Part shown: positions 7,788 to 22,691 of the stretch, piece after piece
Numbering within the stretch: the first letter of the stretch is position 1
How the letters are laid out: each line of letters opens with the position of its first letter
NCBI RefSeq assembly: GCF_000025345.1
Contig: NC_013757.1
Span: 1,612,001-1,676,000, forward strand
DNA: 64,000 nucleotides
Direction of reading: 5' to 3'
Origin: Geodermatophilus obscurus DSM 43160
GTDB taxonomy: Bacteria; Actinomycetota; Actinomycetes; Mycobacteriales; Geodermatophilaceae
Translations under genes and position numbers: made by a program
The notes under the pieces: model-generated
Seen by the model: the letters and a program-made list of their open reading frames with translations, nothing else
Databases searched by the model: none
Told to the model about the DNA's origin: nothing

Positions 7788-8036
7788 ATGAAGTCGACTA
7801 TTCTCTGGCCCCTGGTCGTCGGTGCTGTCGTCGCACTCATCCTTGTCATTACGGCCGTCAGCATGTCGGCGTCTGGCTTCCAGTTGGACGTGGAACGGTG
7901 GGTGCTCATCGGCGCCTTCTTGGTCGTCATCTCCATGGCAGCTGCAGCGGTGGTTTCTGCGCTCAACTCGCTCAAGGAAGTGCGCGAGCGGTCGACTGGA
8001 GACGACAGGAGCAATACGTCTGGGGGTTCGTCCTAG
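7788..8036 (+). CDS. small hypothetical membrane protein
   Basis: An ATG at 7788 preceded by GAGG opens an 82-residue frame beginning MKSTILWPLVVGAVVALILV. There are two hydrophobic segments, at about residues 5-27 and 39-60, separated by a short loop containing FQLDVERW. A charged, serine/glycine-rich cytoplasmic-type tail (SLKEVRERSTGDDRSN) follows. No family is recognised. Codon use is less GC-biased than in the neighbours. It lies just left of the island boundary, in a pocket that itself looks acquired. Confidence 0.5.
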   Translation: MKSTILWPLVVGAVVALILVITAVSMSASGFQLDVERWVLIGAFLVVISMAAAAVVSALNSLKEVRERSTGDDRSNTSGGSS

Positions 8037-8238
8037 CGGTGCCTACGCCCTCTTCGGGTCCTCATGGGGTACACGAGGCAGGCGAGCTGCACCGGGGGCG
8101 CCGGCACGCCCGCGTACTCCTCGATGAGACGAGCGGGGAGTGCGTGATCTCGTAGCCGACGACGTCGGCAGCCCGCAGTGCGAGGAGTCCTCCAGACCTC
8201 CTCCAAAAGCCTGACAGACTGCTGGACCTGCAGAAACC

Positions 8239-8287
8239 CGTGGAGCGGGTGACCGGGATCGAACCGGCATGGCCAGCTTGGAAGGCT
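8239..8287 (-). repeat. left att-like copy of the tRNA-Gly(TCC) 3' half
   Basis: Aligned base by base with 22338-22386, 46 of 49 positions match. The copy covers the anticodon, the 3' anticodon stem, the variable region, the T arm and the acceptor strand with an encoded CCA. The three mismatches fall in the T arm, which can still pair. Identity stops abruptly within the anticodon loop/stem region, and the 5' half of a tRNA is absent. It is therefore an attachment-site remnant, not a functional tRNA. Confidence 0.75.
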
Positions 8288-9254
8288 AGGTTCCCCAGCG
8301 TCTCCTTCGGCTGGTCACAGCCTTTCTTGCCCCTCACCGTGCCTTCGGCATGCCTCTGCCGCCGACGGGGTCCGCGACGGCCGGGGGTGCACTTTGCGTA
8401 CATCGGCGCGCTGATGCCCAAGGCCGCGGCCGTCGTGCCCGGATGGAAGGGCGGGATCAAGCACGTGGTCCGTGACCCAGGACACCCTGCGCACGTCACG
8501 TGTCTTCGTCATCGGCGGTGCCAACGACCCGCATGCCGGTTTGGTGGAGAGACCGTGGTCCGCCATGTCCCCCGGACGGCTGTCGATCGCTCCGTCGAGC
8601 GGGCGCCGTCCGGCAGCGGCTCATGGGGCGGCGCTGCCGACTTCTCGTAGGCAGGCCGGCGGCGGACCGGGTGGCGAAGCTGGCGATGACGGCGCCGGCC
8701 CGGGTCAGGCCCAGGGAGCGCAGCGCGTCAGCGCTCGCCGCGTTCGGCGATCGCCAGCAGCCGCTGGGAGCCACTGTTCTCGGGCGCGGTCGGCGGGTGT
8801 CGCGCGGGATCGGCTGCAGGCCGCCGGGACGTGCGGGCGTGGATTCGCTCGGCCGTGCGGTGGGCCTTCTGTCAGGCGAGCTCCTCCGTGGGAGCGATAA
8901 TGGGCCGGAGGGCGACCTGGATGCGGGGCAGGGTGGTGCGCCCGGACGCGCGGGTCGCGGCGTGCGGCGCGCGTTCACAGGGACCAGCCCGGCTTGAGGC
9001 CGACCGGGCGTGGGGCGGCCCGAACAGACCCCACACAGTCGAACAACAAGATGGCCAAGGCTGGCCTGGACAGGCCCCAGGCCCGCACTGGCCTGCTGTC
9101 TGATGGTGGGCCGCTTGGGGCGAGCGCCTGGGCGCTGGCGCCCTCAGCAGGGTCGTGCCTGCTGACCGGATGCAGGCCATGGATCATCTGCTCCATGGCC
9201 TGGCCCGAATCTCGTCCATGGCCTGGCCCGGATCTCGCTGGCTGATCGGCCGGT
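8288..9254. other. long stretch with no supportable gene
   Basis: All open frames here are typical high-GC shadow frames without family resemblance, coherent starts or ribosome-binding sites. The only structure seen is a tandem duplication of a 23-bp unit at 9192-9214 and 9215-9237 (one mismatch), beginning TCCATGGCCTGGCCCG. It probably represents degraded island DNA. Confidence 0.4.
9192..9237. repeat. tandem 23-bp direct repeat (two copies)
   Basis: Two head-to-tail copies of a 23-bp unit that begins TCCATGGCC and ends ATCTCG differ at one base. They lie directly before the 5' end of the broken GAF-ANTAR gene. This may be a slippage product; no function is evident. Confidence 0.6.
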
Positions 9255-9891
9255 GGGAGACGTGCTGACCGAGATCGTCCAAGTCTCCGAGCGGGATCCC
9301 CGGCGCCGAGGCCGTCTCAGTGACCCTGGTGCACGGTGACCAGGCCTCCACCGCCGCTTGCTCCGCCGAGATGGCTCTGCATGCCGAGGAACTCCAGTAC
9401 GAGCGCGGTTACGGCTCCTGCCTGGACGCCGGCTGAGGGGTGGTGGTCCCGCGCATCGACGACATGGCGACCGAGCAGCGGTGGCGGGACTACACCGCCC
9501 AGGTCCTCCAGCACGGCGTGCCCAGCTCGCTGTCGGTCCCGGTGCCCTGCCAGGGGACGGTCATCGGTGCCCTGTACGCGTACTCGAGCAAGCCGGCGGC
9601 CTTCGCCACCCCCGAGGCTGTGGACGCGACGCTGATCGTCGCCGAGACCGTCGCGGTCGCGATGGTCAACGCCCAGGCACATGGCCGACTCGCGGAGAAG
9701 CGGCCAATCTGCGCCTCGCCATGGAGTCGCGGGCGGTCATCGAGCAGGCCAAGGGCGTGATCATGTCGCAGCGGCGCGTAACCGCCGAACAGGCCTTCGA
9801 GTTCCTGCGGGAGGCGTGGATGCGATACAACCGCAAGCTCCGGGACATCGCGGTGGGCCTCGTCGAGGGGGTGCAGCCCCACCGGGCGTAG
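9255..9891 (+). pseudogene. GAF-ANTAR regulator, multiply disrupted
   Basis: Pieces in three frames reconstruct one GAF-ANTAR protein similar to the intact copies at 10575 and 14525. A start-proximal LTEIVQVSER is followed by a frameshift near 9294. The GAF portion (LQYERGYGSCLDAG) is ended by an in-frame TGA at 9434 and resumes as VVVPRIDDMATEQRWRDY. A second frameshift near 9705 precedes the intact ANTAR part (AVIEQAKGVIMSQRRVTAEQ to the stop at 9891). Three separate lesions make sequencing error an unlikely sole cause. ANTAR domains bind RNA hairpins and act by antitermination, but this copy cannot produce the full protein. Confidence 0.75.
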
Positions 9892-9966
9892 GAGCAGTCG
9901 ACATGCCGTTCCGGTTCAAGCCGGGGCGCGTGCTCGACGCCGTGCCCTCGGGTTACGGTCGCAGTC

Positions 9967-10236
9967 GTGCCCGATGCCAGGGAGATCGAGCCAGCAGACG
10001 CCGACCGGATCCGCGCCGCACTCCTCGGCGTCCGCGATGCCCAGGACGAGCTGGAGAAGGCCGTCGCCCGGGCCCTTGTCAACGGCGCGAGCGTGCGCGC
10101 TGTCGCCGAGCTGGGACTCTCGCCCAACACGGTGCAGAAGTACGGGCGGGCGCATGGCTGGCCCACCGAGGAGAACCGCCGGCGGTTCAACGAGTCCCGC
10201 TGGGACCGGCAGGAACGTCAGCGCGCCGACGGGTAG
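9967..10236 (+). CDS. small helix-turn-helix protein, unknown function
   Basis: This 89-residue frame starts at GTG. An acidic helical N-terminus (DADRIRAALLGVRDAQDELE) is followed by a plausible helix-turn-helix, GASVRAVAELGLSPNTVQKY, as in homeodomain-like or resolvase-type HTHs. The tail is basic. It shows good actinobacterial coding bias. It sits between the broken and the intact GAF-ANTAR genes. It is probably a DNA-binding accessory protein; no named family is recognised. Confidence 0.55.
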   Translation: MPDAREIEPADADRIRAALLGVRDAQDELEKAVARALVNGASVRAVAELGLSPNTVQKYGRAHGWPTEENRRRFNESRWDRQERQRADG

Positions 10237-10574
10237 TGCGGTTGCACCAACCGCCTGCAGTCGGTCGATGACCCCTCGCCGATACAGCTGTTGGTTGAAC
10301 CACACCGGCTGGTGGGGACGGTACGCCCCATCCTACGACCCCAGTACGACAGCGAGTCACCACCTGACCACCTCCGGGGGGCCGCTACGGGACAGGAGGC
10401 GGCCTCAGGACAGGGGAGGGGCGGCCCCGCCGTCCACAGTGTTGGAACGGCGGGGCCTGACCGCGACGGCGCCCGTGGAGGCCGCTGCGGCTGCTCATCA
10501 GTGCCCGCGGTCCCCCGATCCGGGGCGACTCGGCAGGTACCTGGGCCGGGCCAGCATCCGGTGCCGGGCCCGGC
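10237..10574. other. intergenic, contains a terminator hairpin
   Basis: There is no coding frame with support. The stretch lies between convergent genes and contains one strong hairpin at 10423-10457, listed separately. Confidence 0.5.
10423..10457 (-). terminator. hairpin, likely terminator of the GAF-ANTAR gene
   Basis: Eleven-base perfect arms, GGCCCCGCCGT (10423-10433) and ACGGCGGGGCC (10447-10457), enclose a 13-base loop. They lie downstream of the minus-strand gene ending at 10575. There is no U-tract, as is common in high-GC actinobacteria. Confidence 0.55.
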
Positions 10575-11303
10575 TCATCGGAGGGGTAGTTCGCCGGTGT
10601 GGACCAGGGCGTCGGCGACCGCGTGCAGCTTGCGGTTGGTCTTCATCGACATCTGGGCCAGGACCTGGAACGCCTGGTCCGCGGTGAGCTTGTGGCGGTC
10701 CATCAGGATCCCCTTGGCCTGGTCGATGACCCCTCGGGTCTCCAGCGCGGTCTGCAGGTTGTCGGCCCTGTCCCGGGCGCTCTGGTAGGCGTGCAGGTTG
10801 CCGGCGGCGACCGCGGCGTAGGGGGCGAACCGGGTGGCCGCGCTCCGGCTGTCCTCGTCGAAGGCGTGCGGCTCGCGGGCGTAGATGTTCAGGGCGCCGC
10901 AGACCCGCTCGTCCTCGTCGATGGCCAGCGGAACGGACAGGGAGCTCAGGGCACCGTGCTCGGCCGCCCGGGGCAGGTAGTCCGGCCACCGGGAATCGGT
11001 GCGGGCGTCGGCGATCTCGATCAGCTCACCGGTGTGGGCGGCGTGCAGGCAGGGGCCGTGGCCGCGTTCGTACTGGGACTCGTCCAGGTCGGTGGCCAGT
11101 TGGCCGGTGCTGGCCACCGTGGTCGGGTGGTCCTTGACCACCAGCGTCACCGACGCCTCGGGGCTGCCCGGCATCACCGTCTTGGTCAGGTCGGCCACGA
11201 TCTGGAGCAGGCCTTCCATCGACAGCCCGCGCAGGGACAACCGGCCCAGGCGCTCCAGCGCCTCGGTGGCATTCGCCGGTTGCGGGTTCTCGGCACTGCC
11301 CAC
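10575..11303 (-). CDS. GAF-ANTAR domain RNA-binding regulator
   Basis: The protein has 242 residues. An N-terminal GAF sensor covers about 25-165, with DESQYERGHGPCLHAAHTGE and SSLSVPLAIDEDERVCGALN. A C-terminal ANTAR domain covers about 175-235 (ETRGVIDQAKGILMDRHKLT, with FQVLAQMSMKTNRKLHAVAD). ANTAR proteins bind paired RNA hairpins and promote antitermination; the GAF domain presumably senses a small ligand. It is one of three related copies in the island, this one and 14525 being intact. Target transcripts are not evident nearby. Confidence 0.9.
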   Translation of the reverse strand: MGSAENPQPANATEALERLGRLSLRGLSMEGLLQIVADLTKTVMPGSPEASVTLVVKDHPTTVASTGQLATDLDESQYERGHGPCLHAAHTGELIEIADARTDSRWPDYLPRAAEHGALSSLSVPLAIDEDERVCGALNIYAREPHAFDEDSRSAATRFAPYAAVAAGNLHAYQSARDRADNLQTALETRGVIDQAKGILMDRHKLTADQAFQVLAQMSMKTNRKLHAVADALVHTGELPLR

Positions 11304-11641
11304 GGCTCGGCCTCCGGACTGCTGGTACCGAAGGTGGGTGACCTCGGCCGCGGACCTCGATCTGGGGTCCGTGCGCGGTACGCCGACTGTGTGACGCGCC
11401 TCCGACGCCGGGCATCCCGACGTCTCACCCTGACGCTACTCGTCTCGGCGCCTTCCGGGCCCTGGCGATGTCCCTAATGGGCCGCTATGGGATACCGGCC
11501 GGGCTCGCGGTGAGGGCGGCCTGTGGGACGCCCCACCCGGACGGCAGACGATGCGCGCACCGTGGCCGAGCGCCGGACCCGGCCGCCCGCTGGGGTGCGG
11601 CGCTCGGAGGGGCGCCGCACCTCGGCCTCATTCGCCTGACG
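11304..11641. other. intergenic, nothing recognised
   Basis: The stretch lies between the 5' end of a minus-strand GAF-ANTAR gene and the 3' end of a minus-strand SDR gene. No frame has family resemblance. The right part should hold the promoter of the GAF-ANTAR gene, but no clear -35/-10 pair can be asserted. Confidence 0.35.
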
Positions 11642-12496
11642 TCAGGCGTTCGCTGTGGCGTCGTCGCGGGCCAGCGAGCTGGACAGCTCCCGGTGGGCAT
11701 CTACCTGGGCGAGCAGATCCGTCGCCTTCTGCTCGACGCCGGCGACGGCGTCGGCGCCGGCGACCCAGCGCACCGGGGGCTCCTGTGAGCCGGCGAGCTG
11801 CACCAGCGCCTCCGCGAGCTTGGCCGGGTCCCCGCCCTGCTGGCCGTTCATGCTCTTCCACGCCGTGACGGTCTGCCTGGTGCGCTGGGCGTAGTCCTCG
11901 ATCGAGGGCTCGGCGTAGCTCGTCGACTCAGGGGTGAGCAGGTCGGTGCGGAAGAACCCGGGCTCGACGACCATCGTGCGGATGCCGAACGGAGCCACCT
12001 CCGGCGAGAGCGACTCCATCCACCCTTCGAGGGCGAACTTCGACGCGGCGTAGGCGGAGGTGAACTCCTGCCCGATCAGACCTGCGGAGGAACTCATGGT
12101 CACCACGACTCCGGAGCGCTGGGCGCGCATGACCGGCAGCACGGCGCGGGTGACGTTGAGCGGGCCGAACAGGTTGGTGTCGATCTGGGCGCGGAAGTCC
12201 TCCGGGGTGATCTCCTCGAAGAAGCCGGCGTAGAAGTTGCCCGCGTTGTTCACCAGCACGTCGACCCGACCGAACCGGTGCACGGCGGCGTCGACCGCGG
12301 ACTGGACACTGGTGGGGTCGGTGACATCCAGGGCGACGGCCAGCAGGTCCTCGTGCGCGCCGAGTGCCGCGGCGACCCGGTCGGGGTTGCGGCCGGTGGC
12401 CACGACCGCGTGCCCCGCGTCCAGGGCGGCGCGCGCGATGTCGGTGCCCATGCCGCGGCCCGCGCCGGTGACGAGCCAGATCTTCTTGTCAGTCAT
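11642..12496 (-). CDS. short-chain dehydrogenase/reductase
   Basis: The 284-residue classical SDR starts at ATG 12496; the open frame extends further upstream but homology starts at MTDKKIWLVTGAGRGMG. The TGxxxGxG cofactor motif is present at about residues 9-16. NNAG lies near 88, the catalytic Ser in TMSSSAGLIG, and YxxxK in SAYAASKFALEG. The NAD(P)H-dependent oxidoreductase substrate is unknown. It is divergent from an XRE/MmyB regulator across 172 bp, a very common pairing in which the regulator controls the SDR. Confidence 0.9.
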   Translation of the reverse strand: MTDKKIWLVTGAGRGMGTDIARAALDAGHAVVATGRNPDRVAAALGAHEDLLAVALDVTDPTSVQSAVDAAVHRFGRVDVLVNNAGNFYAGFFEEITPEDFRAQIDTNLFGPLNVTRAVLPVMRAQRSGVVVTMSSSAGLIGQEFTSAYAASKFALEGWMESLSPEVAPFGIRTMVVEPGFFRTDLLTPESTSYAEPSIEDYAQRTRQTVTAWKSMNGQQGGDPAKLAEALVQLAGSQEPPVRWVAGADAVAGVEQKATDLLAQVDAHRELSSSLARDDATANA

Positions 12497-12668
12497 CTGA
12501 GTGCAGTCCTTCGGTCTCGAACGAATGGGTGGCGAGGTAGGGCCCGCGGCGGCGGGCGGCTGGTCGAACTCGCTGCGACCGAGGAAACGCCGCTCGGCGG
12601 CGGCGTGGCAGAGCCTGCTGTGAGGGGGTACTGGCAGGGCCCCCCGCGCGGGTCGCGGCGGACCTACC

Positions 12669-13583
12669 GTGGTTGCCGTGGACACCCGGAAGGACCTGCG
12701 CGATTTCCTGGCCACCCGACGGGCCCGGATCACTCCGCAGCAGGCGGGCCTGCCGACCTACGGCGGGCACCGGCGCGTGCCCGGGCTGCGCCGCGAGGAG
12801 GTGGCGCTCCTTGCCGGCGTCAGCGTTGAGTACTACACCCGCCTGGAGCGCGGCAACGCGAACGGTGTCTCCGACAGCGTGCTGGAGGCGCTGGCCCGTG
12901 TCCTGCAGCTCGACGACGCCGAGCGCGCCCACCTCTACGACCTCACCCGAGGCATGACAGCGGCGGCCCGCAGCCGTCGTCGTCCGGCCCGACCCGGCGT
13001 CCGCCCGGGAGTGCAGCAGCTGCTCGATGCGATGACCGTCGTCCCGGCGTTCGTGCAGAACGCTCGGCTGGACGTCCCGGCCGCCAACCCGCTCGCCCGC
13101 GCGCTCTACGCCGACCTGTTCGACGACGCCGAACCCGGCAGCGCCGGCCGCACGCCCAACCACGCCCGCTACGCCTTCCTCGACGCGCGGGCCACCGACT
13201 TCTACCCCGACTGGAACCGGGTCGCCGCCGACATCGTGTCCCAGCTGCGGGCCGAAGTCGGCCGCAGCCCCGACGACCGGGAGCTCACCGAGCTCATCGG
13301 GGAGCTGACCACCCGCAGCCAGCACTTCAGCACCCTGTGGGCCACGCACAACGTGCGCTGGCACACCACCGGCACCAAGCGCTTCCACCACCCGGTCGTC
13401 GGAGACCTCACCCTCGCCTACGAGGGGATGGCGCTCACCGCCGACCGGGGCCAGACGCTCATCACCTTCACCGCGGAGCCAGGCTCACCCTCGCAGCAGG
13501 CACTGGCCTTCCTCGCCAGCTGGGCCACCTCGCCCACACAGCGGGCCGCCCAGGATCGAGCCAACGAGGACCACACGACCTGA
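12669..13583 (+). CDS. XRE/MmyB-type transcriptional regulator
   Basis: The protein has 304 residues from the GTG at 12669 (a second GTG at 12678 is possible). The N-terminal helix-turn-helix includes RVPGLRREEVALLAGVSVEY and YTRLERGNANGVSDSVLEAL. The C-terminal half is the MmyB-like ligand-binding domain (FVQNARLDVPAANPLARALY, FSTLWATHNVRWHTTGTKRF). Such proteins are DNA-binding regulators whose C-terminal domain resembles a PAS-like fatty-acid pocket. It is divergent from the SDR and probably regulates it and itself. Confidence 0.9.
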   Translation: MVAVDTRKDLRDFLATRRARITPQQAGLPTYGGHRRVPGLRREEVALLAGVSVEYYTRLERGNANGVSDSVLEALARVLQLDDAERAHLYDLTRGMTAAARSRRRPARPGVRPGVQQLLDAMTVVPAFVQNARLDVPAANPLARALYADLFDDAEPGSAGRTPNHARYAFLDARATDFYPDWNRVAADIVSQLRAEVGRSPDDRELTELIGELTTRSQHFSTLWATHNVRWHTTGTKRFHHPVVGDLTLAYEGMALTADRGQTLITFTAEPGSPSQQALAFLASWATSPTQRAAQDRANEDHTT

Positions 13584-14003
13584 CCCGCTTTCGCGGCGGA
13601 GCCCTTCCCGCTCAGTGGACAGGATCCGTCGTACCGATGGAACGACGCGCGTGCAGTGACAGGTCAGGCCGCGCCGGGTTGACCACCATTGTTCCCGGTT
13701 CGGGGTCGTTCGCAGGTGACGTCCTCACCGGCGCTGACCGCTGCTCCGGCACGAGCCATTCATGACCCACGCGGGAGACACAGGGCGACAGGGGCCCCAG
13801 ACAGCTCCTTCACGGGACAAGCCGGGGTGGACTCTGCGAGATCAATCAGCCTGGACGACGACGGCGGGTGCGTCGGGGACGTTGGGCGGGATGCGGTTGG
13901 GACCGGCGCTCGGCGGGCGGGGCTTGTCCTGTGGGTGCAGTCGGACGGCGCCGATGGCGACGTGGAGCCTGACCCGGTTTTCCGGACACGTCGGGTTGGG
14001 TGG
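13584..14003. other. intergenic, no gene recognised
   Basis: About 420 bp lie between the regulator and the IS3 remnant. Plus-strand frames here are antisense shadows or random. It may include the outer end of the former insertion sequence, but no terminal inverted repeat could be matched to the opposite end. Confidence 0.35.
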
Positions 14004-14460
14004 TCATGCCGCGGTGCGCGCGTCGGGGTGAAGCTCCTCGAACTGCACGGGACTGCGGTAGCCGAGCGCGGAGTGCCGTCGGCGCGAGTTGTAGAAGGCC
14101 TCGATCCACTCGAAGATCGCCGACCCGAGATCGGCCCGCGTGGCCCATCGCTGCCGGTCGAGCAGTTCCCGCTGCATGGTCGACCAGAAGGACTCCATCA
14201 GGCCGTTGTCGACGCTGCAGGCGACCCGGCCCATCGAGCCCGGCAGCCCGGCGGCACGCAGCCGGTGGCCGAAGATCCACGACGTGTATTGCGATCCGCG
14301 GTCGCTGTGGACGACGGGTACCGGCGGCAGGGCGGCGGCGCCAGCGGGCCATCTCCAAGGCGTCGGCGACCAACTCGGAGCGCATGTGGTCGGCGATCGA
14401 CGGGCGGGGCCCGTCCGGCGCAGTAGCGCCGGGGCTGCCGCCGCCCCGCCACGGCGACAC
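14004..14460 (-). pseudogene. IS3-family transposase (OrfB) C-terminal remnant, frameshifted
   Basis: The minus-strand frame reads VVHSDRGSQYTSWIFGHRLR and SVDNGLMESFWSTMQRELLD, then YNSRRRHSALGYRSPVQFEE to the stop. This is the DDE integrase core of IS3-type OrfB, with the second Asp and the Glu. The preceding segment, SIADHMRSELVADALEMARW, lies in another frame, so a frameshift near 14340 separates them. The first catalytic Asp and everything before it, including OrfA, are missing. The element is dead. Confidence 0.8.
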
Positions 14461-14524
14461 ACGACGCTTAGACGTGCCACTCAACGAGGGCCGCTGGCGG
14501 ACTGGCTGCGAGTAGCTTCCCCGC

Positions 14525-15265
14525 ATGACTGCGGCACCGGACAACACGGCCAACGGCCCAGCCACGGCGGAGCCGCTGGGCGATGTGATGAGCCGCGTAG
14601 CTCGGCAGCTGCAGGAGGAGCACGGCGACGTGGAGGCCACGCTGCAGGCCATCACCAGCTCGGCGACCAGAACCGTGCCGAACGCGGAAGCGTGCGGCAT
14701 CAGCTACGTCATCGGCCGCTCGAAGATCGAGTCCCGGGCCTGGACCAGCGACCTACCGAGAGACGTCGACTCCCTGCAGGAACGACTCAAGCAGGGGCCG
14801 TGCCTCGACGCGGTCTGGGAGCAGGAGGTCGTCCGGGTCGACGACGTGGCCGGAGACGAGCGGTGGCCGGAGTTCGCGCAGGAAGCCTCAGCCCTGGGTG
14901 TGGGCAGCATGATGTGCTTCCAGCTGTTCGTCGACGGCGACCAGCTGGGCGCGATGAACCTGTATGCCCGCATGCCGGGCGCCTTCGATGACGAGTGCGA
15001 GGACATCGGACAGATGCTCGCCGCTCACGCCGCCGTTGCGCTGGCCGGCGCCGAACACGAAGAGAACCTGCGCGCCGGCATGAGCAACCGGGACGTCATC
15101 GGGCAGGCCAAGGGCATCCTCATGGAGCGGCACAAGCTCACCGCGGACCAGGCCTTCGGTGTCCTCAGCCGCGTCTCCCAAGAGTTGAACCGGAAGTTGG
15201 TCGGCGTCGCCCGCGAGCTCACGGACACCGGAGCGGTGCCCGGAGGCGACCGCCGCCGGGATTGA
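14525..15265 (+). CDS. GAF-ANTAR domain RNA-binding regulator
   Basis: The protein has 246 residues from ATG 14525. The GAF sensor spans about 40-175 (LQERLKQGPCLDAVWEQEVV, GSMMCFQLFVDGDQLGAMNL). The ANTAR domain spans about 185-240 (SNRDVIGQAKGILMERHKLT, VLSRVSQELNRKLVGVAREL). It is presumed to bind tandem hairpins in mRNA leaders when the GAF state allows. It is closely related in architecture to the 10575 gene but clearly diverged, so it is not a recent duplication. It is adjacent to the phosphatase/kinase signalling pair. Confidence 0.9.
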   Translation: MTAAPDNTANGPATAEPLGDVMSRVARQLQEEHGDVEATLQAITSSATRTVPNAEACGISYVIGRSKIESRAWTSDLPRDVDSLQERLKQGPCLDAVWEQEVVRVDDVAGDERWPEFAQEASALGVGSMMCFQLFVDGDQLGAMNLYARMPGAFDDECEDIGQMLAAHAAVALAGAEHEENLRAGMSNRDVIGQAKGILMERHKLTADQAFGVLSRVSQELNRKLVGVARELTDTGAVPGGDRRRD

Positions 15266-15560
15266 GCCCTCTGGGCCGACCGCGACGAGCGGTGTGCTTC
15301 GCGGGTGGCCTGTACGCAGCGGCTACTCGCGAACGACCCAACACCTCCCCCGGCCCTGAGAGGTGCCCCGCAGCTACGCAGGCTCGAACGCAGGTAGACG
15401 CCGAACTATCGGGGGCTGTCGTAGAGAGGTCCGCGGACGTCAACAGTTCGGCGGGCAACTCATCGACCTGACCGTGACGCGGGCTCCGGGGAAATCAGCG
15501 ACGGGAGGGGACGCTAGGCGAGCGGCCGCGGTGATGAAGACGGCGACAGGGCCGGCGGGC

Positions 15561-17249
15561 CTAGCGGTCGTGCTCCGGATGGCAGCGGACGGCGAGGAGG
15601 GCGATGTCGTCGTCGGCGCGGCCGGGGACGATGCGGTCGAGCAGCCGGTCGCAGAGCTGGTCGATGGGCACGCCGGCCAGCTCGGTCAGCGCGCCGGTAA
15701 GCCGGGCGAGCCCGGTGTCGATGTCGACCCGGCCGTGTTCGACCACCCCGTCGGTGACCAGGATCAGGGTGTCGCCGGGCTGCAGGGTCGCCTCGTGGTC
15801 GGTGCGGAGGGTCGGCTCATCAGCGCCGAGGAGCCGCTCCGGTGGGCTGTCGAGCAGGTCCGCTGTGCCGTCGGGGTGCAGCAGCAGCGGCGGCAGATGC
15901 CCGGCCGAGGACCAGCGCAGCGTGCGCAGCCCGGCGCGGGCCTGCTCACCCGGCTGCTCGATCCGGGCGAGCAGCACCGTGGCCAGGGTCCCGAAGCCCA
16001 GGCCGGTGAGCACACCGTCGACCCGGGTTAGGGTCTGCGCGGGGCTGTCCGGGCGGTCGTAGGCGAGCGTGCGGACCGCGCTGCGCAGCTGGCTCATCGC
16101 CGCAGCCGCCTCGACCGAGTGCCCGGCCACGTCACCGACTACGAGCAGGGTGGCGCCGTCGGGCTGGGGAAACGCGTCGTAGAAGTCGCCGCCGACCAGT
16201 GCGTGCGCACTAGCCGGCCGGTAGCGCACGGCGATCTCGAGGTGGTCCGGCTGCGGCGGCGGGGTGAGCAGGCTGCGCTGCAGGGTCTCGGCGACCTGCT
16301 GCTGCTGGCCGTAGAGCCGGGCATTGTCCAGCGCCAGCGCGCCGCGGCGCGCGACCTCGACGGTGGTGGCGATCTCCATCTCGGTGTGCGGCGGCCGCCC
16401 CACGGCGTTCATCAGCGCCAGCGCCCCGAAGGTCTCGCCGCGGGCGCGCAGCGGCACGATCGTGCAGCTGGCCGTGTCCAGCCGCCGCCACGCCGCCCGG
16501 ACCTCCTCGGTGGGCAGCGACGGAGCGACCCGCTCCTCGGGGATCGTGGTGATCTGCACCGGCTCGCCGGTGAGCAGCGCGTCGACCATCGCGGCGTCGT
16601 CGCCGGTACCGCGCAGCCGCCCGGTCATGTAGGTGGCCAGGTCGGCGCGGCGGGCCGGATCCCGGTGCGCCCAGGCCTCCTCGCCGGGCCCGTCGTCCTC
16701 GCTGAGCAGCACGACGACCGCCCAGTCGGCCAGCCGCCGCACCACCAGCTCGGCCAGCTGGCCGGCCGACTCGCCCCGGTCCAGGGTGGTGATCAGCGCC
16801 TCGGACACCTCGGCGAGGAAGCGCAGCCGGTCGTGGTCGGCGTCTTCGCCGGCCGCGGCAACCTGTTCGTCGGCCGGGTCGGCGGGGCCTTCGGCGGGCA
16901 GGTCGGCGACCTCGCGGAAGCAGACCTGCAGCAGGTCGTCGGCGAGCTCGGCGGTCGCCGACAGCCACCGGCCGGCGGGGGCGTAGAAGCCGCGCCAGGT
17001 GACCGGGGTGCCCAGGGTCCGGGCGTGCAGCAGGAAGCTGTGGAACACGCTGCCGGCGACCTCGGGGAGCGCGATCCACAGGTTGCGGCCGGCCAGCTCG
17101 GCGCTGTGGGCGCCCAGCAGTCGGGTGGCGGCCCGATTGGCGTAGCGGATGGTCCAGTCGCCGTCGAAGACGGCGACGCCGTCGGGCAGCCGTTCCATCG
17201 CCGCGGCCAGCCACGCCTGCGGCAGTCGATCTGCGGTGGGCTGACTCAC
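15561..17249 (-). CDS. PAS-GAF-SpoIIE-type PP2C serine phosphatase
   Basis: Start chosen at GTG 17249 with GGAG 6-10 bases upstream (562 aa); the frame continues further upstream without support. The N-terminal PAS domain spans about 15-110 (MERLPDGVAVFDGDWTIRYA). GAF follows at about 150-310. The C-terminal PP2C/SpoIIE domain shows LVGGDFYDAFPQPDG, VVGDVAGHSVEAAAAM, ILVTDGVVEHGR and DDIALLAV, the metal-binding motifs. Such proteins dephosphorylate anti-anti-sigma factors in partner-switching pathways. It diverges from an RsbW-like kinase gene, supporting that role; no STAS antagonist gene is visible nearby. Confidence 0.92.
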   Translation of the reverse strand: MSQPTADRLPQAWLAAAMERLPDGVAVFDGDWTIRYANRAATRLLGAHSAELAGRNLWIALPEVAGSVFHSFLLHARTLGTPVTWRGFYAPAGRWLSATAELADDLLQVCFREVADLPAEGPADPADEQVAAAGEDADHDRLRFLAEVSEALITTLDRGESAGQLAELVVRRLADWAVVVLLSEDDGPGEEAWAHRDPARRADLATYMTGRLRGTGDDAAMVDALLTGEPVQITTIPEERVAPSLPTEEVRAAWRRLDTASCTIVPLRARGETFGALALMNAVGRPPHTEMEIATTVEVARRGALALDNARLYGQQQQVAETLQRSLLTPPPQPDHLEIAVRYRPASAHALVGGDFYDAFPQPDGATLLVVGDVAGHSVEAAAAMSQLRSAVRTLAYDRPDSPAQTLTRVDGVLTGLGFGTLATVLLARIEQPGEQARAGLRTLRWSSAGHLPPLLLHPDGTADLLDSPPERLLGADEPTLRTDHEATLQPGDTLILVTDGVVEHGRVDIDTGLARLTGALTELAGVPIDQLCDRLLDRIVPGRADDDIALLAVRCHPEHDR

Positions 17250-17529
17250 CTGTGCTCCATCTCGACGGTCGGCGGATGTCCCACGGCAGAGGACGAGCCC
17301 GGAGGGTACCCGCGCGAGCCGCCGCCACGGCGATCCTCGGGTCCCGCGCGACACTCGTGGCTCTGCCGCCTCCGAGGTCGGGACCGCTGCCGTGCGTCGC
17401 CGGCGTGTCTAGCGTCGGCGAGCGCTGTCAACACTTCTCCGGGACCATCCACGCTTGCAGCGAAACCGCCGATGACGGACGTGGAAATCACGCGGCGCCG
17501 TGCCGTGGCGGGGATCCAGGAGGCGGATG

Positions 17530-18012
17530 GTGAGCGAGGCGCTGTGGGGCCAGCGGCCTCGGCCGACGCCGGGCCCGGATGCGATCGCGGTGGGGCGGTG
17601 GGAGCCGACAACCCCCGCCGAGCTGACCGCCCACCGGCGGCAGCTGTCCGCCGCGCTGCAGGACGGCAGCGGGGCCACTGATGCCGACGAGGTCGCCGTC
17701 GAGCGGCTGCTGCTGGCCTTCGAGGAGCTGGCGTCCAACGCGCTGCGGCACGGCCGCGAACCGATCCGGGTGACCGTGACCGCCGGCCGCGACGAGTGGC
17801 TGCTCGAGGTCAGCGACGCCGCGACCGACCAGCCGCCGACACCCGCGGTGGGCCGCGACGCAGCCGAGGGCGGCCTCGGCCTGTACCTGGTCGCCCGCCT
17901 GTCCGCCGCGCACGGCTGGGACGTCCAGGGTGATCACAAGGTCGCGTGGTGCCGCGCCCAGTACAGCCCCGGCCAGGCCCCGCGCGCCGTAGCCGGTTCC
18001 CGCAGTGCCTAG
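17530..18012 (+). CDS. RsbW-like ATP-binding anti-sigma/serine kinase
   Basis: AGGAGG at 17518-17523 favours the GTG at 17530 over the adjacent ATG at 17527, giving 160 residues. A HATPase_c fold is shown by the N-box FEELASNALRHGREPIRVTV, the G1 box LLEVSDAATDQPP and the G2 box EGGLGLYLVARLSAAHGWDV. Members bind ATP and phosphorylate STAS-domain antagonists or bind sigma factors. It is divergent from the PP2C phosphatase, 280 bp away. Together they look like half of a partner-switching module whose sigma factor and antagonist lie elsewhere. Confidence 0.85.
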   Translation: MSEALWGQRPRPTPGPDAIAVGRWEPTTPAELTAHRRQLSAALQDGSGATDADEVAVERLLLAFEELASNALRHGREPIRVTVTAGRDEWLLEVSDAATDQPPTPAVGRDAAEGGLGLYLVARLSAAHGWDVQGDHKVAWCRAQYSPGQAPRAVAGSRSA

Positions 18013-18328
18013 CGCGGGCACCTGCACCCAGGTCTCATCTCTATCGGCCAGCACGTCGGCCGAGGCTGCTGAGCGCCCGGGGGCTGCCGACCCCCGCCGT
18101 GCTCACCCACCCAGCAGGGTGCCCGCCCAGCCGACGGGGCAGTCACTATCCCGGCACCGGGACGGCAAGTGCCGGGGAGGCCTTCCGCCGGTGGGTCCCC
18201 CCGACCCCAGGTGCAAGATCGGAACGGGCGCCTGGGATTGCCCGTGCCAAGAGTTGCGTGCCAATCCCTGCGCCTGCCAATCGCGCCCGGATCGGCGCGA
18301 CCCAACCCCGGAGGTGGCGTCCCGCTCG
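18013..18328. other. intergenic, no gene recognised
   Basis: The stretch between the kinase gene and the left end of the IS256-type element contains only shadow frames. No terminator hairpin stands out. Confidence 0.35.
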
Positions 18329-19720
18329 GTGGTGTAGCTCTGGCCGGTTCGCGGGGTCTTCTGCGGGTTGAACTATGACGCGATCAGGGCTGGCTGTGCC
18401 ACCTCCTCCGTCGAGTTGTCTGGTCGGTTGAGCAGTGCCATGGAGCCCTCGGAGAGGTAGCGGCGGTCGGGGACCTGCCATTCGTCGTGGGCCTCGACCA
18501 GCACCGCGCCGGCCAGCCGGAGCAGCGCGGCGGGGTTGAGGAAGACGCCGACGACGTCGGTGCGCCGCTTGATCTCCTTGTTCAGCCGCTCCAGCGGATT
18601 GGTCGACCAGATCTTCTTCCAGTGCCAGACCGGGAAGCTCGTGAATGCCAGCAAGTCCTCGGCTGCGTCGCGCAGCATGGCCTCGACCTGGGCAAACTGA
18701 CGGCCGAGCATGCCGGCAATGACGCTCAGCTGGGAATGCACGTGCTCGGCGTCGGGCTGGGCGAAGACGGTGCCGATGGCGGCGGCGACCATCTCGGCGT
18801 TGCCCTTCGGGACGCCGGCGAGCACGTCGCGCATGAAGTGCACCCGGCAGCGCTGCCAGGCAGCACCCAACAGCACCGCGCCGATCGCGGCCTTCAGGCC
18901 GGTGTGGGCATCGGAGATGACCAGCTGGGTGCCGCCCAGCCCGCGGGCCTTCAGCGAGCGCAGGAACGCCGTCCAGAACGCGCCGTCCTCCGAATCGCCG
19001 ACGGCGAAGCCGAGCACCTCCCGGTGGCCGTCGGAGGCTACTCCGGTGGCGATCACGACCGCCTGGGAGACCACTCGGCGGTTGACCCGCGCCTTGCAGT
19101 AGGTCGCGTCGAGGAAGACGTACGGGAAGGCCTGCTCGGCCAGCGAACGGTCGCGGAAGGCGGCCACTTCCTCGTCCAGGTCGGCGCAGATCCGGGACAC
19201 CTCGGACTTGGAGATGCCGTGTCCGCATCGAGGGCCCGGACCAGATCATCGACCTTCCGCGTGCTCACGCCGTGCAGATAGGCCTCCATCACCACCGCGA
19301 ACAGCGCCTGGTCGATCCGCCGGCGCCGCTCCAGCAGCGAGGGGAAGAACGACCCGGCCCGCAGCTTCGGGATCCGCAGCTCCAGGTCCCCGGCGGTGGT
19401 GGTCAGCGTGCGGGGTCGGGAGCCGTTGCGCTGGGCGGTCCGGGCCTCGGTGCGCTCGTGCGGCGCGGCGCCGATCGTGGCGGTCAGCTCGGCTTCGATC
19501 AGCGCCTGATACAGCGTCTCGGTCGCGGCGCGGATGCGGTCGTCGACGTGGGCGAGCTTGAGTGCCTCGAGGAGTTCGAGCAGGGCAGACTGGTCCAGGG
19601 CCATCGCGTGGCCTTTCTCCTACGTGTTCCTTGGCGGGTTCACGCAGAAGATCCACGCGGTGGCCTCTTGCAGGCCAGCACCACGCCGACGAGCTCAAGG
19701 CCTCCACCCAGCTACACCAC
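18329..19720 (-). mobile_element. IS256-family insertion sequence (about 1.39 kb)
   Basis: Perfect 11-bp inverted ends, GTGGTGTAGCT at 18329-18339 and its complement at 19710-19720, flank a single transposase gene. The length is normal for IS256-type elements. The flanking 8-9 bp do not match each other, so no target-site duplication is seen, suggesting an old or rearranged insertion. The transposase carries a one-base frameshift, so the copy is probably inactive. Confidence 0.7.
18373..19604 (-). pseudogene. IS256-family transposase with one-base frameshift
   Basis: The N-terminal part (19604 inward) begins MALDQSALLELLEALKLAHV and contains RKVDDLVRALDADT. The C-terminal part ending at 18373 contains EVSRICADLDEEVAAFRDRS, YVFLDATYCKARVN (first catalytic Asp), VISDAHTGLKAAIG (second Asp) and WSTNPLERLNKEIKRRTDVV. 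The two are joined if one base is restored near 19226, where GCGGACACGGCATC lacks the base needed to read ADTGIS. The combined length, about 410 residues, is typical of the family. It mobilises the surrounding element in intact copies. Confidence 0.85.
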
Positions 19721-19985
19721 TTCCAGGGACGTCACCGCAGCCGGCAGATTCCAGGTGTGCACCGACGTGATGAATCGCCCTTCGGCCGGTATCTGGCAAG
19801 AGTCCGGCAGGTCAGGGGCCGGGATCTCGTCATGCCGAGGACGTTTTGAGGGCGTGTCCCGGGTTGGCGGTGGGTAGCGGTTTGGCAGAGAAACCAGCCA
19901 GGCGAGAGCAGGTCGCGGCGCCCGTCTGCGCCTTCACCGGCGGTGGGCGGCGCCGGCTGCGGTGCCTCGAGGGATGGAGAACCAC

Positions 19986-20711
19986 ATGCCCGCAAGACGC
20001 CCGCTCAGGGGGCGGCGGATCGCCGCCCTGGCGGCCGATGGCTTCGAGAGGGTCGAGCTGGTCATCCCGCTGCGGGCCCTGAAGCGGGCCGGTGCGGGGG
20101 TCGACGTGGTGTCCCTCCGGCACGGACGCATCCGGGGTGTGAACTTGCACATGCCCGCCACCCGGGTGGGCGTCGACAAGACGATCAGCGAGACCGATCC
20201 TGCCGCTTACGACGGGCTACTGCTCCCCGGCGGGTTCATCAGTCCTGATCTGCTCCGCCAGTCCGCCGAGGCACGGGAGTTCGTCCGCGCCTTCGCGGCG
20301 ACTGACCGACCCATCGTCACGCTTTGCCATGGACCGTGGGTCCTCGCGTCGGCGGGAGTCCTCGTGGGACGGACCCTCACTTCCTGGCCCGGCATCCGGG
20401 ACGACCTGGTGAACGCAGGCGCCACGTGGTGGGATCGGCAGGTCGTACGGGACGGGAACCTCACCACGAGCCGAGGGCCCCAGGACATGGCAGCCTTCGT
20501 CCCGGCGATGCTCGAGGCCTTCACCGAGACCTCCCCACAGCCGGCGAGGACGACAGCGGACGACGAGTCCGATCCGCAGCGCGATGCGCCTTCGGGTCTG
20601 GCGGTCACGGCGCTGCGGTGGTCCCCGAAGCCGTCTGCCGTCGCCTTGGTCGGCATCGGACTGGTGGCGGCCGCCCGGGGCGGTTCTCGCGGGCCGGCGC
20701 CGCGGGGGTGA
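19986..20711 (+). CDS. DJ-1/PfpI-family (type 1 glutamine amidotransferase-like) protein
   Basis: Start at ATG 19986, with GGAG seven bases upstream; GTG 19962 and ATG 19974 are in-frame alternatives. It has 241 residues. The core (5-180) matches the PfpI class: GRRIAALAADGFERVELVIP, YDGLLLPGGFISPDLLRQSA and the nucleophile elbow PIVTLCHGPWVLASAGVLVG with the conserved Cys. A C-terminal tail of about 60 residues is low-complexity with a short hydrophobic stretch. The family includes general stress proteins with deglycase, chaperone or protease-like claims; the activity here is unproven. It precedes a stress-type SDR. Confidence 0.88.
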   Translation: MPARRPLRGRRIAALAADGFERVELVIPLRALKRAGAGVDVVSLRHGRIRGVNLHMPATRVGVDKTISETDPAAYDGLLLPGGFISPDLLRQSAEAREFVRAFAATDRPIVTLCHGPWVLASAGVLVGRTLTSWPGIRDDLVNAGATWWDRQVVRDGNLTTSRGPQDMAAFVPAMLEAFTETSPQPARTTADDESDPQRDAPSGLAVTALRWSPKPSAVALVGIGLVAAARGGSRGPAPRG

Positions 20712-21202
20712 CCTGTGCCGCGCAGCGTTCCTGGTCCTGTCGCCGGCGGCAGGTGCGCTTTCCGCGGTGTCGACAGCGGCCGCCTGATCGTCGGGCATGA
20801 ACTGCCCGCTGGAGCGGACGGCGACGACGGCGTCAGCGGGAACGGCCAGCCCCAGACCGGGCGCGTCCACCCATTCGCCTCCACTTCGCCGAGCCGCCGC
20901 TCCGTCCGGACCGTGGCACACCGCAGCGCTGTCGACGGCAGGCCCCACGCCGGGCCGGTCATGTGGCACCCCGGCGAACAGCCGGGATGCGTCTCCGGGT
21001 GCAGGGGCTGGCTATCGCTCGAGCGGGAAGTCCGCCATGCGTCGATCCTGCCCACGCCTGCTCCGTCGCTGCCGTCCCACCGCCCCGGCGGCCGTCCCCC
21101 GGTCATTCGCAGCCTGCCGTGGACTCCGCTGTCCGGGTCCGCGGTCTGCCGGTCCTGCGGCCTGGGTAGGAACCGGTTCCGACCACACGGCGAAGGAGCC
21201 CC
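20712..21202. other. intergenic, no gene recognised
   Basis: About 490 bp lie between the DJ-1 gene and the SDR remnant. No frame with family resemblance was found on either strand. A palindromic GGAACCGGTTCC lies at about 21169-21180, just before the AAGGAG ribosome-binding site of the SDR. It might be an operator, but nothing further supports this. Confidence 0.35.
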
Positions 21203-22086
21203 ATAAGCCAGGACCAGTACTCCCCCCAGGACCCCACCGGGCAGCACGTCAAGCCGGACGCGCTGCCGGAGCAGGAGATCGAGCACCCGGGCCTGGAGTC
21301 CGACATGGCCGTCGAGCCCGACTACGGCGAGGAGACCTATCGGGGCAGTGGTCGGCTCGAGGGGAAGCGCGCCCTCATCACGGGAGGCGACTCCGGCATC
21401 GGGCGCGCGGTGGCGCTGGCCTACGCCCGCGAGGGTGCCGACGTCGTGCTGTCGTACCTGCCCGAGGAGGAGGACGCGCAGGTGACCGCCCGCGTGGTCC
21501 GGGACGCCGGCCGCACCGCCGTGACCGCGCCCGGGGACATCCGGGACGAGGCCTTCTGCCGAGAACTCGTCGAGTGGACCGTCTCCGAGCTCGGTGGACT
21601 CGACGTGCTGGTGAGCAACGCGGCTTACCAGATGACCATCGAGGACCTCAGCACCGAGCAGCTGCTGCGCACGTACTACACGAACGTCTTCGCCACCTTC
21701 TGGCTGTGCAAGGCTGCTGTCGCGCACCTGCAGCCGGGCTCGAGCATCATCATCACGACCTCGATCCAGGCCTACCAGCCCTCCCCGGCCCTGCTGGACT
21801 ACGCCTCCACCAAGGGCGCGCTGGTGAACTTCACGAAGGGGCTGTCCCAGGAGCTCGCCCCCCGCGGGATCCGGGTCAACACCGTGGCCCCCGGTCCGAT
21901 CTGGACCCCGCTGATCTCGGCGACCATGCCCGCCGAGAAGGTGGGATCCTTCGGCGCCGAGACCCCATCGGCCGCGCCGGTCAACCTGCGGAGCTGGCCC
22001 CTGCCTACGTCTTCTCGGCGGCCCAGGAGTCGAGCTACATCACCGGGGAGCGGATCGGCGTCACCGGCGGGATGCCGATGCCCTGA
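21203..22086 (+). pseudogene. general-stress-type SDR oxidoreductase, start codon ATA and 3' frameshift
   Basis: From 21203 the frame reads as a YdaD-type SDR: a polar N-terminus containing [20 protein letters not shown], then [43 protein letters not shown] and [20 protein letters not shown]. The codon after AAGGAG is ATA where an ATG is expected; the next in-frame ATG is at 21305 with its own GGAG. Near 21965 the frame breaks. The conserved end ([16 protein letters not shown] to GVTGGMPMP, stop at 22086) is one base out of phase, consistent with a lost C in a C-run. It is either decayed or carries an indel. Confidence 0.75.
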
Positions 22087-22100
22087 GCCGATCCGCCGCA

Positions 22101-22123
22101 GGAAGGCCCGACGCGGCCTTTCC
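22101..22123 (+). terminator. hairpin after the SDR remnant
   Basis: GGAAGGCC and GGCCTTTCC, separated by a short spacer, pair with one bulged T, 15 bp downstream of the SDR stop. It is a plausible intrinsic terminator. Confidence 0.45.
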
Positions 22124-22337
22124 CTGCTCGTGGCCGAGAGTGGGCCTCGGGGCGTCCGGCGGTGGCTGGACCCTCCTGACCGCCGGTGTCCTCAGGGGCC
22201 GGGCGGTCGCCGCACGGACATGGTCGACCGGCCGTCCTCCGCCAGGCAGTCGACCCCGCGCACCCTCTCGGCTGAGGCACGTAGCAGGGTCAAGACCCGC
22301 GCTCAGCTGGGCGGACACGCAGAGGAGCTGGTCGGGA

Positions 22338-22386
22338 CGTGGAGCGGGTGACGGGAATCGAACCCGCATGGCCAGCTTGGAAGGCT
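22338..22386 (-). repeat. right att-like site (3' half of intact tRNA-Gly)
   Basis: This segment from the anticodon to just past the CCA matches 8239-8287 at 46 of 49 positions in the same orientation. It is the partner of the left att-like copy. Confidence 0.75.
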
Positions 22387-22413
22387 GGGGCTCTACCATT
22401 GAGCTACACCCGC
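22343..22413 (-). tRNA. tRNA-Gly(TCC)
   Basis: On the minus strand the 71-nt sequence starts GCGGGTGTAGCTCAATGG. The acceptor pairs GCGGGTG/CACCCGC, the anticodon stem-loop contains CTTCCAA (anticodon TCC), and the T arm is GCGGG-TTCGATT-CCCGT. The CCA end is encoded at 22340-22342. Its 3' half is the right boundary of the putative island. Confidence 0.97.
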
Positions 22414-22501: not shown

Positions 22502-22575
22502 CGGGGTGTGGCGCAGCTTGGTAGCGCACCCGCTTTGGGAGCGGGGGGCCGTGGGTTCGAATCCCGCCACCCCGA
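22502..22575 (+). tRNA. tRNA-Pro(TGG)
   Basis: The 74-nt cloverleaf starts CGGGGTGTGGCGCAGCTTGG. Acceptor arms CGGGGTG/CACCCCG pair, the anticodon loop is CTTTGGGA (anticodon TGG), and the T arm contains GTTCGAATC. CCA is encoded at 22576-22578. It is divergent from tRNA-Gly and immediately upstream of tig. Confidence 0.97.
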
Positions 22576-22691
22576 CCATCGCGGTCCCCGTCCCGCCGGA
22601 CCGGCGCCTCCACGGCTGTCTCTAGACTCGTGGGTCGACCCGGCGTCGTCCGGCGCCCGTCCCCGTCTGTCGATCGAGGAGCACTGCCGCT

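What the first reader, a model, noticed from the sequence alone, without database searches (positions are those of the whole stretch)
8239..22386. 14-kb genomic island delimited by a tRNA-Gly 3'-half direct repeat
A 49-bp segment at 8239-8287 repeats the 3' half (anticodon to CCA) of the intact tRNA-Gly(TCC) at 22338-22386, with 46 identities in the same orientation. This is the classic product of tyrosine-recombinase integration at a tRNA. Everything between is accessory or broken, and the core gene order starts immediately to the right. No integrase, relaxase or replication gene is seen inside.
Basis: partly seen in the sequence, partly recalled or inferred. Interest (0 to 1): 0.75.

Follow-up and report, generated by a model that had tools for sequence, protein, structure and literature searches.

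The report
Integrase-less island at tRNA-Gly hotspot
A 14-kb block of extra genes sits in a soil actinobacterium's chromosome exactly where mobile elements plug into a glycine tRNA gene; it keeps its plug ends but has no enzyme to move it, and the same plug site is re-used in many related bacteria.

Summary
In detail: 8239-8287 repeats 46 of 49 bases of the tRNA-Gly(TCC) 3' half at 22338-22386. The differences are not decay: one compensated T-stem pair and one T-loop base. The left copy equals, 47/47, the intact tRNA-Gly 3' half in 20 of 33 other loci, so integration probably swapped the tRNA's 3' half.
Both ends carry element 'arms' known from relatives' cores: R2 at 8289-8369 (held-out model, E 4e-9) and, weakly, B at 22297-22339 (top hit, E 0.066). 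Elsewhere R2 ends are followed by B/C ends in 15 of 17 classified pairs, R1 ends by A in 12 of 13.
No integrase is inside. In six relatives a tyrosine recombinase, int2, lies inward of an R2 core; the one stretch examined looks like an ICE. Best reading: a decayed CIME-type island in a family-wide tandem hotspot (two or more core matches in 29 of 57 genomes). No strict empty site was found; the left boundary is a re-used scar. New member of a known kind.

The parts
8176..8238 (+). arm A: flank left of the displaced tRNA 3' half; the same flank stands beside intact tRNA-Gly genes in relatives
   Evidence: held-out model hit 8176-8233, E 2.4e-8, only significant hit in 64 kb; joined-flank alignment in 16 genomes
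8239..8287 (-). displaced tRNA-Gly 3' half (distal core, attL-type), allele ACCGGGATCGAACCGG on the plus strand
   Evidence: 46/49 to 22338-22386; 47/47 to 20 of 33 other tRNA-Gly loci
8289..8369 (+). arm R2: element end inside the distal core (CTGGTCA and CGTGCCTTCGGCATGCCTC)
   Evidence: held-out model E 4e-9, only significant hit in 64 kb; 37.4 bits against 0 for R1 and R1b
9358..9891 (+). broken GAF-ANTAR gene (GAF part in frame 9440-9760, ANTAR part in frame 9358-9891)
   Evidence: Pfam GAF and ANTAR in two frames
9967..10236 (+). small DNA-binding-like protein, 89 aa
   Evidence: phrog_664, E 1.6e-4
10575..11303 (-). GAF-ANTAR regulator
   Evidence: Pfam ANTAR 2e-22
11642..12511 (-). short-chain dehydrogenase
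   Evidence: Pfam adh_short, NCBIfam
12669..13583 (+). MmyB-type HTH regulator
   Evidence: Pfam MLTR_LBD 7.7e-59
14004..14480 (-). IS3-type transposase fragment
   Evidence: Pfam rve_3, rve_2
14525..15265 (+). GAF-ANTAR regulator
   Evidence: Pfam
15561..17267 (-). PAS-GAF-SpoIIE phosphatase
   Evidence: Pfam SpoIIE 9.6e-42
17500..18012 (+). HATPase_c_2 protein, anti-sigma-kinase-like
   Evidence: Pfam
18312..19669 (-). Mutator-family IS with its transposase in two frames; 85% copy elsewhere in the genome (in locus L060)
   Evidence: Pfam Transposase_mut in two overlapping frames; blastn 85% over 1369 bp
19974..20711 (+). DJ-1/PfpI family protein
   Evidence: Pfam, TIGR01382 above cut-off
21305..22086 (+). 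short-chain dehydrogenase broken by a frameshift, next to the tRNA
   Evidence: N-terminal part in frame 21305-22351, C-terminal part in frame 20797-22086
22297..22339 (+). arm B: element end abutting the intact tRNA
   Evidence: top hit of the held-out model but weak, E 0.066; junction aligns with 15 genomes, in 9 of them for 40-70 bp beyond the core
22340..22413 (-). intact tRNA-Gly(TCC), inferred chimera: 3' half (ACGGGAATCGAACCCG on the plus strand) from the element, 5' half native
   Evidence: ARAGORN, Rfam, alleles

Best explanation
The 14 kb is an integrase-less genomic island of the CIME type (integration and transfer genes lost, both att ends kept), left by an element with R2 and B arms that integrated by tyrosine recombination into the tRNA-Gly(TCC) gene. 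The crossover lay on the anticodon side of the T-arm: the native 3' half with its A flank was pushed 14 kb away, and the element's 3' half (other T-stem allele, B arm) now completes the tRNA. The likely parent type is an R2-type ICE with the int2 tyrosine recombinase and a conjugation apparatus, seen in relatives. What remains is cargo (GAF-ANTAR, SpoIIE/HATPase signalling, PfpI, dehydrogenases) eroded by IS insertions and frameshifts. It can no longer move unless a related ICE supplies the recombinase. Shown: repeat, alleles, A and R2 arms, hotspot, absence of integrase. Inferred: direction of the exchange, B arm identity, ICE parentage, present immobility.
For: Repeat and orientation. The left copy is the allele of 20 of 33 other tRNA-Gly loci, 47/47; the intact tRNA has the other allele. 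Arm models trained without this genome hit the expected places: R2 E 4e-9, A E 2.4e-8, B weak but top, E 0.066. R2 is followed by B/C in 15 of 17 classified pairs (6 more unclassified), R1/R1b by A in 12 of 13 (1 more unclassified), window excluded; Fisher p 0.008 and 0.011 in two sets of contigs. Joined half-sites align across the joint in 16 genomes, the occupied right junction in 15. int1 lies beside cores; int1 or a piece of it lies within 1.5 kb of 10 of 18 R1/R1b cores. int2, at least 90% identical to that of G013 in G016, G026, G031, G091 and G092, lies inward of an R2 core on the same contig in 6 of 6. In G092 an R2-like arm abuts int2 (E 1.4e-6), and the stretch codes for a VirD4/TraG-like protein, an SCO6880-family protein and a TadA/VirB11-like ATPase. 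GAF-ANTAR and HATPase homologues recur in a 4.8-kb R2..C unit of G031.
Against: No ICE gene or integrase remnant remains in the island, so ICE parentage rests on the arms alone. The window's B arm scores low (10.0 bits; E 0.066), and 6 of the 15 right-junction alignments reach only 13 bp beyond the core. Of 5 int2 copies tested, 1 has a clear adjacent R2 arm, 1 a marginal one, and none a core above 32/47. No strict empty site; the orthologous left site in G016 carries a decayed core of another kind, so the two ends may stem from more than one event. A pair against the rule, G005 70044 R2 to A, was dropped for want of flank. GC of the island is near that of its flanks (0.718 against 0.737 and 0.747). 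No relaxase was identified in the G092 stretch.
Confidence: 0.72

Rival explanations
1. Composite region: several small elements inserted one after another between the two cores and inner cores were lost, so the 14 kb is accreted DNA rather than one island.
For: Tandem cores are usual in relatives (four on one contig, tRNA included, in G008 and G013; five in series in G094); the left flank is an older scar shared with G016; the contents are mixed, with two IS types.
Against: No third core of 34/47 or better lies between the two; R2 to B is the pairing of single units of 4.5-5.4 kb in G023 and G079 and, with B just under threshold, G008.
Confidence: 0.3
2. R2..B/C elements are natively integrase-free satellites moved in trans by int1 or int2 of resident ICEs, not decayed ICEs; the window holds one of them.
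For: Units of about 5 kb in G008, G023 and G031 show regulators, cargo and one IS-type transposase among the 10 ORFs scanned, and PF00589 has no hit inside them or inside the 4.5-kb unit of G079. Toxin genes start within 700 bp of the core in 12 of 30 R2 cores (2 are fragments) against 0 of 18 R1/R1b cores.
Against: int2 lies inward of R2 cores in 6 genomes, so R2 ends also belong to integrase-bearing elements; the toxin queries were themselves found beside R2 cores, so the 0 of 18 is a biased control; no toxin gene follows the window's core.
Confidence: 0.22
3. Remnant prophage integrated at tRNA-Gly.
For: Phages also use tRNA 3' ends (recalled).
Against: No phage structural gene among 10 ORFs scanned with PHROGs, 9 of them in the island; a relative's R2 stretch carries conjugation genes.
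Confidence: 0.03
4. The repeat is a chance or tRNA-paralogue similarity and the 14 kb is ordinary core DNA.
For: None found.
Against: E 2e-16; element arms at the ends; no match above 64% identity to the island's non-IS proteins in the relatives' loci fetched by then.
Confidence: 0.01

Closest known systems
CIME (cis-mobilizable element), as defined in PMC5704250 (passages read)
   Same: att ends retained, no integration or transfer gene found, sits in a tandem-accretion hotspot
   Different: mobilization in cis is not shown; no int1 or int2 relative above 40% was found in this genome
Dehalococcoides ssrA genomic islands, PMC3146451 (passages read)
   Same: tandem islands at the 3' end of one RNA gene, delimited by direct repeats, 15 of them without an integration module
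   Different: there the integrase is a serine recombinase and the target is tmRNA; here tyrosine recombinases and tRNA-Gly
Actinobacterial ICEs, PMC3218068 (listing and a term search only: no mention of Geodermatophilus, Blastococcus or tRNA-Gly)
   Same: the int2 stretch of G092 has a tyrosine recombinase, VirD4/TraG-like, SCO6880 and TadA/VirB11-like proteins
   Different: none of these was found in the window island

Membership tests
CIME (cis-mobilizable element) | retains attL and attR | tested here: met
   core plus R2 arm at the left (E 4e-9), core plus B arm at the right (weak, E 0.066); junction alignments
CIME (cis-mobilizable element) | has lost integration genes | tested here: met
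   no PF00589 hit in the interval; integrase profile best E 0.058, outside the island, against 0.018-0.59 for the best hit of five shuffles and 1.2 reversed; positive control 3.8e-190
CIME (cis-mobilizable element) | has lost transfer genes (relaxase, coupling protein, T4SS) | tested here: met
   none among 20 window ORFs or frames scanned with Pfam, 17 of them in or overlapping the island; short ORFs not scanned
CIME (cis-mobilizable element) | descends from an ICE or IME using the same site | tested here: inconclusive
   R2 and B ends are shared with int2-bearing stretches of relatives, but no backbone gene remains
CIME (cis-mobilizable element) | can be mobilized in cis by an accreted ICE | not testable with these tools
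   needs an excision and mating assay
ICE | own integrase and conjugation module | tested here: not met
Prophage | phage structural genes | tested here: not met
   none in 10 ORFs against PHROGs, 9 of them in the island
tRNA-targeted genomic island | direct repeat of the tRNA 3' end at the far boundary, intact tRNA at the near boundary | tested here: met
tRNA-targeted genomic island | empty site in relatives | tested here: inconclusive
   half-sites joined align across the joint in 16 genomes, but only 28-58 bp beyond the core on the left; no genome joins the larBC side directly to the tRNA

The most novel reading that the evidence does not exclude
One tRNA-Gly(TCC) gene serves as a shared socket for at least two arm-coded element families across Geodermatophilaceae: R1..A units, often with a recombinase at the end, and R2..B/C units that are in part integrase-free cargo cassettes, often capped by a toxin gene at the R2 end and moved in trans. 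Each insertion rewrites the 3' half of the tRNA gene, so tRNA alleles travel with mobile elements (displaced and intact alleles differ in the window, G023 and G027: 3 of 11 scorable neighbouring pairs). Odds lowered from 0.30 on rechecking, because int1 adjoins a core in only 5 of 17 loci and the toxin control is biased.
Probability: 0.27. Interest if true: 0.6.

Novelty: new member of a known kind. Interest (0 to 1): 0.38.

Why it matters
It turns a single repeat into a readable record: the order and type of arms in tandem cores may date successive arrivals at one tRNA gene in a soil family, predict where elements land, and make a testable case of mobile elements swapping tRNA alleles. The anatomy (core, A/B/C and R1/R1b/R2 arms) also gives a way to find integrase-less islands that integrase-based searches miss.

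Tried and rejected
A tblastn match of int2 from G092 at 19739-19879 (E 0.009, crosses a stop) was rejected: neither profile reports it, and the profile hits in the window are of the size found in reversed or shuffled DNA. The first profile was flawed: 6 of its 28 rows were mistranslated; it was rebuilt with 22 rows.

int2 with a good core beside its own gene: not shown. Only G092 has a clear adjacent R2-like arm, and blastn between G016 and G013 shows no alignment beyond the 3' end of int2 except short chance-level ones.

Toxin-antitoxin remnant in the window: no. The search of the whole window used one correct MazF-like query and one mistakenly out of frame; the 1.5 kb right of the window's core was searched again with three correct toxin queries, no hit. 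Those queries come from R2 cores, which biases the comparison with R1 cores. Defence genes: none with PADLOC in the 8 window ORFs scanned. GC shift: slight, not used.

Arm classes. Hand-made motif classes misread some arms (G004 as B) and missed G020's core at 79 kb, so the pairing counts are those of the profile-scored rerun. There, left arms under 8 bits and right arms under 15 bits stayed unclassified (7 pairs). Dropped: G005 70044 (too little flank; by motif an R2 to A pair, against the rule), G066 (fetched, gives no pair), single-core contigs. Three pairs of G082 and G094 (two classified, both B) lie on the 5' side of the tRNA. The first set of contigs was partly in the training set; in the second set G018's tRNA locus and the R1/R1b arms of G061 and G068 (seen as L086 and L082) were also in training, the rest not.

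int1 next to cores is not general: of 17 loci with an int1 of 79% identity or more, 5 have a core 100-137 bp beyond its 3' end, 7 at 2.5-3.6 kb, 1 at 9 kb, 4 none at 34/47 (one of these four, L080 = G020, has a 33/47 core about 140 bp away).

Literature: seven searches, listings capped at 10-20 papers (one search found none). In the titles and abstract starts shown, none describes this hotspot in Geodermatophilaceae; most subscription papers are not held.
Full report
What is there. The window lies in a 5,322,497-base single-contig genome; that size is, from recall, that of Geodermatophilus obscurus DSM 43160. The 17 named records that carry the recombinase int1 at 79% identity or more are Geodermatophilus, Blastococcus and one Trujillonella. 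ARAGORN finds tRNA-Gly(TCC) at 22340-22413 (minus) and tRNA-Pro(TGG) at 22502-22578 (plus), nothing at 8.2 kb. The segment 8239-8287 matches 22338-22386 at 46 of 49 bases, E 2e-16 within the window.

The left copy is the other allele, not a ruin. The three differences are one T-stem pair changed on both sides (G-C to C-G) and one T-loop base, read directly from the sequence. Over 47 bases the left copy is identical to the intact tRNA-Gly 3' half of 20 of the 33 other non-redundant tRNA-Gly loci collected, while the window's intact tRNA has the allele also found intact in G003, G004, G009, G015, G017, G024 and G025. With the crossover on the anticodon side of the T-arm, this is what integration gives: the native 3' half is displaced and the element's 3' half completes the tRNA. 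The direction is inferred.

A family-wide hotspot. A 25-base core pattern (up to 2 mismatches) has two or more matches in 29 of 57 Geodermatophilaceae genomes, and its reversed control none in any. Of 17 int1 loci, 5 have a core 100-137 bp beyond the 3' end of the gene, 7 at 2.5-3.6 kb, 1 at 9 kb and 4 none. larC, left of the island, lies near tRNA-Gly on the same contig in 6 of 37 genomes: 16.6 kb away here, 12.7 (G014), 41 (G009), 46 (G016), 64 (G008) and 112 kb (G013). The contents in between differ: none of the window island's non-IS proteins has a match above 64% in the loci fetched.

Arms. DNA next to the cores falls into left arms A, B, C and right arms R1, R1b, R2. Models trained without any sequence of this genome, run over the 64 kb, hit 8289-8369 (R2, E 4e-9) and 8176-8233 (A, E 2.4e-8), each as the only significant hit; B is the top hit at 22297-22339 but weak, E 0.066. 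Reading each right arm with the left arm of the next core, R1/R1b is followed by A in 12 and by B in 1 (1 unclassified); R2 by B or C in 15 and by A in 2 (6 unclassified); the window is not counted, and one pair against the rule (G005 70044) was dropped for want of flank. Fisher p is 0.008 for the first set of contigs and 0.011 for the second. The window's R2..B is thus a usual pair of one element type.

Empty site. The window's A arm plus left core joined to its own tRNA 5' half aligns across the joint, 82-89% identity, with tRNA-Gly loci of 16 genomes; the occupied right junction aligns with 15 genomes, 9 of them for 40-70 bp beyond the core and 6 for only 13 bp; the occupied left junction aligns with three other places, one of them this genome's own second core at 2.67 Mb. 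The joined match reaches only 28-58 bp left of the core, and A is also the end of R1-type elements, so these loci show the site without an R2..B element rather than a virgin site. In G016, window 7341-8238 has its orthologue at C12:292226-293122 (82%), ending at a decayed core (35/47) with a different right flank, followed 2.3 kb later by A-core-R2 and 40 kb later by B-core-tRNA. The left boundary is therefore an old, re-used scar.

Who moved it. No PF00589 hit lies in the interval. A profile of 22 relatives' integrases finds nothing (best E 0.058, outside the island; best hits of five shuffles 0.018-0.59; positive control 3.8e-190). This genome has no close int1 (best 40%) and no int2 homologue at E 1e-60. 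int2, a second tyrosine recombinase (40-44% to int1), was found at 90% identity or more to the G013 copy in 4 of 57 family genomes (G026, G031, G091, G092) and in G016. In all 6 it lies inward (towards the tRNA side) of an R2 core on its contig; for G026 and G031 the tRNA itself is on another contig. In G092 an R2-like arm abuts int2 (E 1.4e-6); G031 is marginal and G013, G016 and G091 show none. The G092 stretch codes for a VirD4/TraG-like coupling protein, an SCO6880-family protein, an M23 peptidase, a primase and a TadA/VirB11-like ATPase, next to a type IIG restriction enzyme and an E1-E2 protein. I read this as an ICE, though no relaxase was identified.

Cargo. Apparently intact: two GAF-ANTAR regulators, an SDR beside an MmyB-type regulator, a PAS-GAF-SpoIIE phosphatase, an HATPase, PfpI. 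Broken: a third GAF-ANTAR, an SDR beside the tRNA, an IS3 fragment and a Mutator IS. GAF-ANTAR and HATPase homologues (32-61%) stand in a 4.8-kb R2..C unit of G031, and a GAF-ANTAR homologue (52%) lies 2.5 kb from int2 in G013. No transfer, phage structural or defence gene was found in the window ORFs scanned.

Verdict. An integrase-less, CIME-type island in a tandem tRNA-Gly hotspot. The kind is known: CIME as defined in PMC5704250 and the ssrA islands of Dehalococcoides in PMC3146451 (passages read). The locus and its arm code were not seen in the listings of the searches made.

Noticed in passing
genome positions 2671492 and 2740046 (loci L059 and L060), 1 Mb from the window: Two further tRNA-Gly 3'-half fragments in this genome with no tRNA called in the loci; the first has the A and R2 arms and a MazF-like gene. 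How they came to lie away from tRNA-Gly is unexplained.
   Followed up: partly
genome position 1750691 (locus L061:5692): A decayed core whose right flank resembles that of the decayed left core in G016 (L075:7128): possibly an older, third element type.
   Followed up: no
30 R2 cores, e.g. L032, L047, L062, L066, L074, L199, L201: PemK/MazF-like or PIN-domain toxin genes start within 700 bp of the R2 core in 12 of 30, against 0 of 18 R1/R1b cores; the queries came from R2 cores.
   Followed up: partly
G094 C1:1663492-1692626 and 1466944-1522715: Eight tRNA-Gly cores in one genome, the tRNA included: four in series on its 3' side and three on the other side.
   Followed up: no
intact tRNA-Gly of G009, G003, G004, G020, G014: The bases after the discriminator vary (TCG, CGG, AGG, TTG, CGG in place of TGG on the plus strand), so an encoded CCA end seems to come and go at this gene.
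   Followed up: no
L207:769-5607 and 6242-8377 (G092): A type IIG restriction enzyme and an E1-E2 (ThiF plus E2) protein at the tRNA end of the int2 element.
   Followed up: partly
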